Below are positions 27,667 through 34,478 of a stretch of DNA of 64,000 bases, piece after piece. The notes beneath the pieces were generated by a model, which was not told where the DNA came from, did no database searches, and saw only the letters and a program-made list of their open reading frames with translations. Positions within the stretch are counted from its first letter, which is position 1, and every line of letters begins with the position of its first letter. This stretch comes from Thermobaculum terrenum ATCC BAA-798 (GTDB lineage: Bacteria > Chloroflexota > Chloroflexia > Thermobaculales > Thermobaculaceae), in the NCBI RefSeq assembly GCF_000025005.1, contig NC_013525.1:496001-560000 (forward strand). The letters run 5' to 3'. Made by a program: the position numbers and the translations under genes.

Positions 27667-27789
27667 GATTGCCTCCTTTCGTACGCCTACGGGGTTAGCT
27701 GACGGGTTAGGGTCGAAAGGCTACCCTGTCCAGACGGACTTCACCCCAATTACTTTTGGTTCCCCCGTTCCCTTCAAGGGATTCGGCCA
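27667..27789 (-). promoter_or_regulatory. c-di-AMP riboswitch (ydaO-yuaA type)
   Basis: The minus strand carries the consensus blocks of the ydaO class in order: GGCCGAATCCC, then GGGGGAACCAAAAG, TTGGGGTGAAGTCC, GGGTAGCC, and the highly conserved ACCCGTCAGCTAACCCCGTA followed by GGCG and the closing GGAGGC. These match the Thermoanaerobacter c-di-AMP aptamer (GCCGAAUCC, GGAGGAACC, UUUGGGGUUAAUC, ACCCGACAGCUAAC). A -10 box TATAAT (27791-27796) sits directly upstream, so the transcript begins at the aptamer. The class usually turns genes off when c-di-AMP is high, through a terminator like the one at 27621-27648. Controlled genes here: inositol-phosphate synthase, glpD, glpK and mgtC. Confidence 0.93.
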
Positions 27790-27850
27790 AATTATATATT
27801 TTGTTTCTAGAACTATAGCATACTAAGAAATTGAGAACTATGCCAAATGC

Positions 27851-32300: not shown

Positions 32301-33940
32301 ATGGCGTCCAGAGGAGGATTGGTAACTTGAGCGAACAGCTGCTTGAAGTAGTTGAATAGCAGCTGTGGTCGTTCGGAGAGCACAGCTATAGGGGTATCTG
32401 TGCCCATAGAACCGATAGGCTCTTCACCGTTCTTTGCCATGGGGATGATTATGATCCTGTTCTCCTCATGCGTGTAGCCAAATATCTGCTGACGCTGGAG
32501 TACGGTATTGTGATCTGGCTCAGGCACGTGAGGAGGTGCGGGCAGATCATCTATCTTGACTCGGTTCTCCGATAGCCACCTGCCATAGGGCTTCTCACTA
32601 GCTATACGAGCCTTGAGTTCGGCATCATCGACTATGCGCCCCTCGACGGTATCTATTAGAAGCATCTTGCCCGGCTCAATCCTGCCCTTATAGACCACAT
32701 CTTCTGGCGCTACGTCCAGAACACCCACTTCCGAGGCCAGTATTACCTGATCATCCTTTGTAACGTAATATCTGGCCGGTCTCAGGCCGTTGCGGTCTAG
32801 GACGGCACCCACCAGGCGGCCATCTGTAAAGGCCACCGCGGCAGGTCCGTCCCAGGGCTCCATAAGGGAGGCGTGGTAGTCATAGAAATTCTTCTTGATC
32901 TCACTCATACCCTCGTGGCCTGACCATGCCTCGGGGATGAGCATCATCATAGCATGGGGTAGAGAGCGCCCAGCTCTTACCAGCAACTCAAGGACGTTGT
33001 CTAGGGTTGCTGAGTCGCTTCCTCCCTCCTGAATTACGGGCAGGATGTCCCTTAGATCATCGTCAAACAGCTCAGATTCCATCTGCCCTTCTCGGGCACG
33101 CATCCAGTTAATGTTGCCGCGGAGCGTGTTGATCTCACCATTGTGAGCTAGCATCCTGAATGGATGCGCCAGGGACCATGTGGGAAAGGTGTTGGTGCTG
33201 AATCGTTGGTGAACCAGAGCGATAGCGCTTTCCAGTAAGGGGCTTCTCAGATCGGCGAAGTAGGCTGGTAGCTGGTCCGCCGACAGCATGCCCTTATAAA
33301 CCAAAGTCCTACATGAGAGGCTTGGTACATAGAACATGTCTTTGGAGGGTATGTTCGAGTTGTCTACCGCCTTCTCCACTCGGCGGCGTATGAGGTAGAG
33401 CACGCGCTCAAAGTGCTCCTCGTCCTCTATGGCCTCCCCTTTACCTATGAACACCTGGCGCATCAGAGGCTCGCCGCTGCGGGCTATATCGCCTATCATG
33501 CTGTTATCCTGCGGGACGTCGCGCCACCCAAGCACCTTTTGCCCGGCGCGCATTATCTCCTGCTCAAACAATTCCTGGCAGGGCTTTGCTTGTTCCTCTA
33601 CCTTGGGCAGGAAAACCATGCCAACGGCGTATTCGCCGGGCTCAGGTAGCTCGAAGCCAAGCTTCAAGCACTCAGCCTTAAGGAAATTGTGAGGGATCTG
33701 GATCAGAATGCCTGAGCCATCTCCAGTATTCTTCTCGGCACCTACTGCTCCTCTATGCAAAAGATTCTGGAGTGCAAGTAGTGCTTTCTGGACGACATCG
33801 GAGGATTTCCTTCCTTTGATGTCAACTACAAACGCTACACCACAGGCATCTTTCTCAAAGGAAGGGTCATATAGTCCCTCAGCATCGGGCATTCCATATG
33901 GACGCTTACATGTAGCTTGCAACTCTTCTCTTTTCCCCAT
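29363..33940 (-). CDS. gltB: Glutamate synthase, large (alpha) subunit
   Basis: 1525 residues, the standard length. The mature enzyme begins at Cys33 in [14 protein letters not shown], the glutamine amidotransferase nucleophile, after a short propeptide. The glutaminase domain has [19 protein letters not shown] and [10 protein letters not shown]; the central and FMN domains include [23 protein letters not shown] split over the barrel and [12 protein letters not shown]; the 3Fe-4S cysteines are in [19 protein letters not shown]; the C-terminal beta-helix has GGKIIAYPP and [23 protein letters not shown] 33940 has GAGGG upstream. The mRNA begins with a T-box element, so transcription appears to depend on an uncharged tRNA. 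Confidence 0.97.
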
Positions 33941-33995: not shown

Positions 33996-34022
33996 CGAAG
34001 CCTCCTGGTCTGGGAGGCTTCG
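33996..34022 (-). other. Second hairpin in the gltB leader
   Basis: CGAAGCCTCC (33996-34005) pairs with GGAGGCTTCG (34013-34022). On the minus strand it is followed by AGCTTTATAAAAC, too few U residues for a strong terminator. The stretch from 34023 to 34167 between it and the T-box holds no gene or motif that I recognise. Confidence 0.45.
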
Positions 34023-34167
34023 TCAGGTGGTTGGCAACTTTTCCGACTAACCCCTGACCATCAACCTCCCTCAATCGCTGCTAGAAGGCCAATGCTAAGG
34101 ACTTTGATGTTTAGATAGAGCTTCTGTGTTTTTACAGGAAAATCTCTAACAAGCATTGTGAGATCCT

Positions 34168-34412
34168 TAAACCACAACAGCCCTCGATCCCAGCTCAAGG
34201 GACGAGGGCTGCCTCGCGGTACCACCCTTGTTGCCGCCACCTTCGGGTGACGACCACTCATGCGCGCTAACGGGCGTAACCCGTTCGACCCTACTAAGAT
34301 TTCAGGCCGACCGCTCCAGGGCCGCGTTCGGGATAAGAAGCGTCCGAGTCACACCAGCCCTCGGCTCTCTGAGCGTCTTCGTTACCCCTACTATTCCCTT
34401 TCACAGCGTTTC
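34168..34412 (-). promoter_or_regulatory. T-box riboswitch upstream of gltB, specifier reads CGC (Arg)
   Basis: On the minus strand the element shows the specifier-loop motif AATAGTA (5' side), a helix pairing GGGGTAACGAAG with CTTCTTATCCC, the AG bulge CAGAGAGCC, a distal hairpin CCGAG/CTCGG, and on the 3' side GAA-CGC-GG (GAA 34327-34329, CGC 34324-34326). In the Oceanobacillus glyQ T-box the specifier follows the same GAA, which makes CGC (arginine) the specifier here. The T-box sequence GGGTGGTACCGCG follows (about 34216-34227), with UGGU to pair a tRNA ending ACCA. The terminator is a long stem CAGCCCTCG/CGAGGGCTG (34178-34211) with TTGTGGTTT. An alternative AGGG/CCCT antiterminator is available. 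High confidence for T-box, moderate for specifier. Confidence 0.92.
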
Positions 34413-34449
34413 TATTTGTGATTTACTTTAACAAACTTCTCTCGGGATA

Positions 34450-34478
34450 GCAATAGTTTTCGTCAAGATTTCGTGCAA
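34450..34478 (-). promoter_or_regulatory. Promoter of the T-box/gltBD transcript
   Basis: TTGCAC (34473-34478) and TATTGC (34450-34455) on the minus strand are spaced by 17 bases, about 40 bases upstream of the first T-box helix. Confidence 0.5.

What the first reader, a model, noticed from the sequence alone, without database searches (positions are those of the whole stretch)
34168..34412. Arginine-type T-box in front of glutamate synthase gltBD
Seen: specifier-loop motif, AG bulge, distal loop, GGGTGGTACCGCG and a long terminator all in the right order on the minus strand upstream of gltB. By analogy with the glyQ T-box, the triplet after GAA is CGC. Known: T-boxes normally control aminoacyl-tRNA synthetase, amino-acid biosynthesis or transport genes. 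Inferred: starvation for arginine, which is built from glutamate, raises glutamate synthase. I know of no described case of gltB under an arginine T-box.
Basis: partly seen in the sequence, partly recalled or inferred. Interest (0 to 1): 0.78.

Follow-up and report, generated by a model that had tools for sequence, protein, structure and literature searches.

The report
Alanine-type T-box before glutamate synthase
The glutamate synthase genes of this heat-loving Chloroflexia bacterium carry a real tRNA-sensing RNA switch, but the sequence says it reads alanine (not arginine) tRNA; [quoted passage not shown]

Summary
The T-box is real: RF00230, 141.5 bits, E 1.5e-31, window 34195-34413 (-), with its terminator at 34179-34210, upstream of gltBD. 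The arginine call does not hold. It used the triplet right after GAA. In T-boxes the specifier is counted from the 3' end of the loop; in 31 of 31 eight-nucleotide-loop T-boxes with a visible gene in this genome and six family relatives, that reading gives the right amino acid. Here it gives GCG (Ala). The UGGU bulge fits tRNA-Ala (A73). All five tRNA-Arg genes have G73, and the argG T-boxes with a readable bulge use UGGC. The leader is a duplicate of this genome's ilvB leucine T-box (80% identity, sister in the tree, 0.995). In four relatives gltB is still inside the ilv-leu operon behind that leucine T-box; here gltBD has moved out with a re-specified copy. Downstream (33997-34156) the copy keeps a 31-codon leader ORF and three mutually exclusive pairing segments, as in the 16 Chloroflexia ilvB leaders measured (15 of 16 with a 7-9 bp competing helix). 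So gltBD probably sits behind two attenuators in series. Both T-runs are weak and nothing was tested at the bench.

The parts
34425..34453 (-). putative promoter TTGCTA-17 nt-TAAAGT just upstream of the T-box
   Evidence: Sequence; aligns with TTGACA-17-TTACAT of the ilvB leader. The generic promoter scan did not report it (8 of 12 matches); inferred.
34195..34413 (-). T-box leader (Stem I, II-type hairpins, Stem III, antiterminator)
   Evidence: Rfam RF00230 141.5 bits, E 1.5e-31; sister of the ilvB T-box in the tree
34322..34329 (-). 3' strand of the specifier loop, GAACGCGG, 8 nt
   Evidence: flanked by paired stems GGGGUAA/UUAUCCC and AGGG/CCCU
34323..34325 (-). specifier GCG (Ala), nucleotides 2-4 from the 3' end of the loop
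   Evidence: position rule verified on the family's T-boxes and in TBDB
34221..34224 (-). T-box bulge UGGU, complementary to ACCA (discriminator A)
34179..34210 (-). T-box terminator hairpin; U-tract interrupted (GUUGUGGUUU)
   Evidence: -22 kcal/mol, z -4.4
34061..34156 (-). 31-codon leader ORF MLVRDFPVKTQKLYLNIKVLSIGLLAAIEGG*, AAGGA 7 nt upstream of ATG
   Evidence: positional counterpart of the BCAA leader peptide of ilvB
34083..34094 (-). attenuator segment 1 (codons Ile-Gly-Leu-Leu), pairs with segment 2
   Evidence: fold
34059..34070 (-). attenuator segment 2 (GGGAGGUUGAUG, overlaps the GG* end of the leader ORF)
34012..34021 (-). attenuator segment 3 (GAAGCCUCCC)
33997..34005 (-). attenuator segment 4 (GGAGGCUUC); 3:4 hairpin, no good U-run after it
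   Evidence: -14.9 kcal/mol, z -3.9; this hairpin occurs only twice in the genome
29363..33940 (-). gltB, glutamate synthase large subunit
   Evidence: NF008730, E 1.8e-132 on the first 415 aa
27904..29373 (-). gltD, glutamate synthase small subunit
   Evidence: Fer4_20 and Pyr_redox_2; position in operon

Best explanation
The leader of gltBD is a duplicate of the ilvB (branched-chain amino acid operon) leader, made when gltBD left that operon in this lineage, and its T-box was re-specified from leucine (CUC) to alanine (GCG). Uncharged tRNA-Ala(CGC) would pair its anticodon with GCG and its ACCA end with the UGGU bulge, form the antiterminator and let RNA polymerase through; charged tRNA-Ala leaves the terminator at 34179-34210. 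Polymerase then meets a second, ribosome-read attenuator: a ribosome that stalls on the Ile/Leu/Leu(/Ala/Ala) codons of the 31-codon leader ORF frees segment 2 to pair with segment 3 (read-through), while a ribosome that reaches the stop covers segment 2 so that 3:4 forms. Both stages must be passed, so glutamate synthase would rise when alanine is short, and fully only when translation of Leu/Ile/Ala codons is also slow. Shown by sequence: T-box, specifier position, discriminator fit, duplication, operon history, competing structures. Inferred: tRNA binding, termination, translation of the ORF and the serial logic.
For: T-box. Specifier rule: in 7 genomes the 3'-anchored triplet matches the gene in 31 of 31 eight-nt-loop T-boxes with a visible gene, the triplet after GAA in 1 of 31; 20 of the family's downstream genes were confirmed by NCBIfam. 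Exact look-alikes: valS GAAC|GUC|G in five relatives and glyS GAAC|GGC|G. TBDB uses the same rule. Discriminator: tRNA-Ala(CGC) and (GGC) A73; five tRNA-Arg all G73; argG bulges all UGGC. Leu to Ala needs no bulge change, Leu to Arg would. Duplication: 80% identity to the ilvB T-box, sister with 0.995 support, 42% identity to argG. Operon history: gltB (with gltD where the contig reaches it) follows ilvE in four relatives behind a Leu(CUC) T-box; in this genome ilvE is followed directly by leuB. Selection on structure: the substitutions in the A2 and terminator helices are paired, e.g. G/C/G to A/U/A keeps both antiterminator and terminator. Second attenuator: 16 of 16 measured Chloroflexia ilvB leaders show a BCAA-rich ORF and a 3:4 hairpin, 15 of 16 with a competing 2:3 helix of 7-9 bp (leaders outside the family were chosen because they had such an ORF); the hairpin occurs only twice in this genome, in the ilvB and gltB leaders; gltB fold z -3.8.
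Against: GCG is only 1% of Ala specifiers in TBDB, whereas CGC is 52% of Arg specifiers. TBDB accepts G:U wobble at the discriminator, so UGGU does not strictly exclude tRNA-Arg. No other Ala T-box was found in the family. U-tracts after both hairpins are poor. The gltB leader peptide has lost most of its Leu/Ile/Val run. In one relative (G009) the 2:3 helix found automatically was only 4 bp. Only one genome carries the gltB copy, so there is no comparative test of the copy itself.
Confidence: 0.7

Rival explanations
1. Arginine T-box: CGC is read by tRNA-Arg(GCG), and arginine starvation raises glutamate synthase.
For: CGC follows GAA; CGC is the commonest Arg specifier (52%); the genome has a tRNA-Arg with anticodon GCG; G:U wobble at the discriminator is possible.
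Against: Would put the specifier one nucleotide off the position used by the family's other T-boxes; argG T-boxes use UGGC, tRNA-Arg all G73; the leader descends from a Leu T-box, not from argG.
Confidence: 0.12
2. Drifted copy: after duplication the specifier loop changed by chance and the T-box no longer responds to any tRNA; gltBD is expressed at a fixed level.
For: Long branch of the gltB copy (0.32 against 0.07 for ilvB); rare specifier GCG; weak U-tracts; single genome.
Against: 141.5 bits, second best in the genome; changes in the antiterminator and terminator helices are compensated; antiterminator, terminator, leader ORF and hairpin all intact.
Confidence: 0.12
3. Dual specificity: the 8-nt loop offers overlapping CGC and GCG and binds both tRNA-Arg and tRNA-Ala.
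For: TBDB notes that longer specifier loops may allow more than one frame.
Against: In 31 family T-boxes with 8-nt loops only the 3'-anchored frame is meaningful; discriminator G73 fits UGGU only by wobble.
Confidence: 0.06
4. The T-box (Ala) works, but the downstream leader ORF and hairpin are an unused remnant of the ilvB leader.
For: Reduced BCAA run in the gltB peptide; no U-run after the 3:4 hairpin.
Against: Segments 1, 2, 3 and 4 all still pair; z -3.8; AAGGA in front of the ORF start.
Confidence: 0.35

Closest known systems
T-box leader, Rfam RF00230 (e.g. the B. subtilis ilv-leu Leu T-box)
   Same: Full domain order, specifier loop, UGGN bulge, mutually exclusive antiterminator and terminator
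   Different: Regulates gltBD; specifier GCG (Ala) in a copy of a Leu T-box; second attenuator downstream
T-box duplication with change of specificity (Wels et al. 2008, PMC2494555, mode iv)
   Same: Duplicate of an existing T-box placed before another gene with a new specifier
   Different: The whole leader including a leader-peptide attenuator was copied, and the gene came out of the parent operon
Ribosome-mediated attenuators of ilv operons (reviewed in PMC6123439)
   Same: Leader ORF with Leu/Ile/Val codons and competing hairpins
   Different: Placed in series behind a T-box in this family; the gltB copy has few BCAA codons; weak U-tract
B. subtilis rtpA (anti-TRAP) leader: T-box followed by a leader peptide (own knowledge, not looked up)
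   Same: tRNA-read T-box followed by ribosome-read leader peptide in one transcript
   Different: There the peptide controls translation of AT and both stages read Trp

Membership tests
T-box leader (RF00230) | covariance-model match over the whole family model | tested here: met
   141.5 bits, 1-219/219
T-box leader (RF00230) | specifier triplet complementary to a tRNA anticodon of the genome | tested here: met
   GCG / tRNA-Ala(CGC), L035
T-box leader (RF00230) | UGGN bulge complementary to the discriminator of that tRNA | tested here: met
   UGGU / A73
T-box leader (RF00230) | mutually exclusive antiterminator and terminator | tested here: met
   both helices intact; terminator U-tract weak
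T-box leader (RF00230) | binds uncharged tRNA and changes read-through | not testable with these tools
   needs experiment
Arginine T-box | Arg codon at nucleotides 2-4 from the 3' end of the specifier loop | tested here: not met
   GCG there
Arginine T-box | bulge base pairs Watson-Crick with the tRNA-Arg discriminator (G73) | tested here: not met
   U; only wobble possible
Alanine T-box | Ala codon at the specifier position and A73-complementary bulge | tested here: met
   GCG, UGGU
Ribosome-mediated (leader-peptide) attenuator | small ORF with control codons just before alternative hairpins | tested here: inconclusive
   ORF present; the ilvB leaders have clear BCAA runs, the gltB copy only Ile, Leu, Leu, Ala, Ala
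Ribosome-mediated (leader-peptide) attenuator | competing 2:3 and 3:4 helices | tested here: met
Ribosome-mediated (leader-peptide) attenuator | 3:4 hairpin is an intrinsic terminator (U-run) | tested here: inconclusive
   interrupted U-tracts in nearly all leaders
Ribosome-mediated (leader-peptide) attenuator | leader ORF is translated and stalls on starvation | not testable with these tools
   needs ribosome profiling or reporters

The most novel reading that the evidence does not exclude
Glutamate synthase under a two-stage leader that checks two separate signals in series: charging of tRNA-Ala by a T-box, then translation speed of Ile/Leu/Ala codons by a leader-peptide attenuator. It arose when gltBD left the ilv-leu operon with a copy of that operon's T-box-plus-attenuator leader and the T-box was re-aimed from Leu to Ala.
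Probability: 0.45. Interest if true: 0.62.

Novelty: new variant of a known kind. Interest (0 to 1): 0.5.

Why it matters
It links central nitrogen assimilation to an amino-acid-specific tRNA sensor, and it catches a T-box in the act of changing specificity, with the parent (ilvB leader), the ancestral gene order (ilv-leu-gltBD in four relatives) and the re-aimed copy all available. The move from Leu to Ala needed only the specifier loop, because both tRNAs have discriminator A. In this bacterial family a T-box stands in front of what looks like an older ribosome-read attenuator, a natural case for asking how two attenuators in series combine. It is also a practical warning: reading the triplet after GAA mis-assigns T-boxes with 8-nt loops.

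Tried and rejected
Arginine reading: rejected on position, discriminator and ancestry. A glutamine or other riboswitch between T-box and gltB: Rfam at E up to 5 shows only chance matches. gltB T-box as a common feature of the class: 19 gltB loci of relatives gave no Rfam match at E up to 0.01, though several contigs hold little DNA upstream. The attenuator hairpin as a generic repeat or terminator: it occurs only twice in the genome. The gaps upstream of gltB in the relatives as another copy of the element: no CCUCC segment there. The genome-contig scan with gltB returned mostly Proteobacteria and other phyla and was no help for the leader. Papers naming a T-box with gltB, or Thermobaculum with a T-box: none on topic. 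Organism name (Thermobaculum terrenum) rests on my memory of the two replicon lengths; no tool confirmed it.

Full report
1. The observation. The minus strand at 34413-34195 is a complete T-box (Rfam RF00230, 141.5 bits, gathering score 93, E 1.5e-31), not a chance match. The terminator hairpin is at 34210-34179 (-22 kcal/mol, z -4.4). A promoter-like TTGCTA-17-TAAAGT sits just upstream (34453-34425) and aligns with TTGACA-17-TTACAT of the ilvB leader, although the generic scan did not list it. gltB begins at 33940. The genome (two replicons of 2,026,947 and 1,074,634 bp, class Chloroflexia; I believe Thermobaculum terrenum, from memory) has ten T-boxes: ilvB, gltB, trpE, thrS, ileS, a homocitrate synthase, valS, proS, metS and argG.

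2. Which amino acid. The loop's 3' strand is GAACGCGG, between UUAUCCC and CCCU. I read the loop in all T-boxes of the genome and six family relatives (68 places, two not parsed by the script and one argG box, G013 C69:430-664, mis-parsed). Loops are 7 or 8 nt long. Counting back from the 3' stem, the triplet followed by exactly one nucleotide matches the gene wherever a gene is visible and the loop was read correctly; among the 8-nt loops this is 31 of 31 (thrS ACC, ileS AUC, homocitrate synthase AAG, valS GUA/GUC, tyrS UAC, proS CCC, glyS GGC, argG CGC, aspS GAC). The triplet after GAA matches in 1 of 31. Gene names were confirmed with NCBIfam for the ten boxes here and ten relatives; the rest were assigned by obvious N-terminal similarity. 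valS of the relatives has GAAC|GUC|G and one glyS has GAAC|GGC|G, the same shape as GAAC|GCG|G. TBDB gives priority to the same position (PMC7778990). So the specifier is GCG, alanine.

3. The other contact. The bulge is UGGU, complementary to ACCA. tRNA-Ala(CGC) and tRNA-Ala(GGC) have A73; all five tRNA-Arg genes have G73; tRNA-Leu(GAG) has A73. All argG T-boxes with a readable bulge have UGGC. A shift from Leu to Ala needs no bulge change; a shift to Arg would need U to C. Against this: GCG makes up only 1% of Ala specifiers in TBDB, CGC 52% of Arg specifiers, and wobble at the discriminator is tolerated. I put Ala at about 0.7.

4. Where it came from. The gltB T-box is 80% identical to the ilvB T-box of the same genome, 60-66% to the ilvB T-boxes of relatives, 42% to its own argG T-box, and is sister to ilvB with 0.995 support. 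In four relatives gltB lies directly behind ilvE in the operon headed by a Leu (CUC) T-box, with gltD, leuB and a citramalate-synthase-like gene after it where the contig is long enough. In this genome ilvE is followed directly by leuB, and gltBD stands alone at 0.53 Mb with a copy of the ilvB leader. None of the relatives' gltB loci shows a T-box just upstream. So gltBD left the operon and took a leader along. The copy is not obviously decaying: the upper stem was rebuilt to GGGGUAA/UUAUCCC, and one C/U difference is matched by G/A in both the antiterminator and the terminator strand, which keeps both structures.

5. The second element. Between T-box and ilvB the family's leaders hold a small ORF rich in Leu/Ile/Val and three segments, GGGAGGC, GCCUCCC and GGGAGGC, that can pair 2:3 or 3:4. 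Outside the family I looked at 26 further ilvB loci; a LIV-rich ORF hit turned up in part of them, and in the 12 of these that I measured, together with the four family members, the ORF, the hairpin and (15 of 16) a 7-9 bp 2:3 helix are present, with paired changes in the flanking base pairs, and without a T-box in the 12. The 12 were chosen because they had such an ORF, so 16 of 16 describes leaders with an ORF, not all Chloroflexia; 14 of the 26 were not measured and most of them gave no ORF hit. The gltB copy keeps the ORF (MLVRDFPVKTQKLYLNIKVLSIGLLAAIEGG*, AAGGA before its ATG), the 1:2, 2:3 and 3:4 pairings (z -3.8 for the region), and the hairpin pattern occurs in this genome only in these two leaders. 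The BCAA run is reduced to Ile, Leu, Leu, followed by Ala-Ala. The hairpins lack good U-runs, in ilvB leaders too.

6. How it most likely works. Uncharged tRNA-Ala opens the first terminator; slow translation of the leader ORF opens the second. Glutamate is the amino donor for Leu, Ile, Val and Ala, so putting its synthesis under these signals makes sense. Steps shown: sequence, position rule, discriminators, ancestry, alternative structures. Steps inferred: binding, termination, translation, serial logic.

7. What is new. T-boxes, their duplication with change of specifier (PMC2494555) and BCAA leader-peptide attenuators (PMC6123439) are known. I found no paper with a T-box on gltB or with this T-box-plus-attenuator pair, but the library is open access only. 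B. subtilis rtpA is a precedent for T-box plus leader peptide (own knowledge). I call it a new variant of a known kind.

Noticed in passing
window 27668-27798 (-): c-di-AMP riboswitch (RF00379, 95.6 bits) upstream of a 430-aa ORF with MobA-like NTP transferase and CDP-alcohol phosphatidyltransferase domains, perhaps for an inositol-phosphate compatible solute.
   Followed up: partly
L265-L268 (G024, G009, G021, G003), just upstream of gltB in G003, G009 and G021: A short ORF ending KPIRAFTGDS* is conserved with synonymous changes in front of gltB; found in 4 of 158 class genomes by pattern, absent from this genome and G017. The G024 hit lies by a gltB fragment. A possible separate gltB leader peptide.
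   Followed up: partly
L239-L264 (ilvB loci of other Chloroflexia): Several ilvB operons outside the family carry a LIV-rich leader ORF with a GGGAGGCT/AGCCTCCC/GGGAGGCT triple but no T-box; possibly an older class-level attenuator.
   Followed up: partly
L198 (G021 C37:111-341): A proS T-box nests inside the thrS T-box clade with specifier ACC to CCC and bulge UGGA to UGGU: apparently another re-specification, here with a bulge change.
   Followed up: no
G013 C69:122-664 (L213): Two T-boxes in a row on one strand in front of an argG-like gene.
   Followed up: no
G009 C126 and G021 C89: argG T-box and ilvB T-box lie back to back, divergently oriented; in the tree the argG and ilvB T-boxes are sister groups.
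   Followed up: no
own genome G000: No 16S rRNA match and no tRNA-Ile(GAT) or tRNA-Ala(TGC) in the tRNA list; probably withheld rRNA operons, so the tRNA-Ala set may be incomplete.
   Followed up: partly
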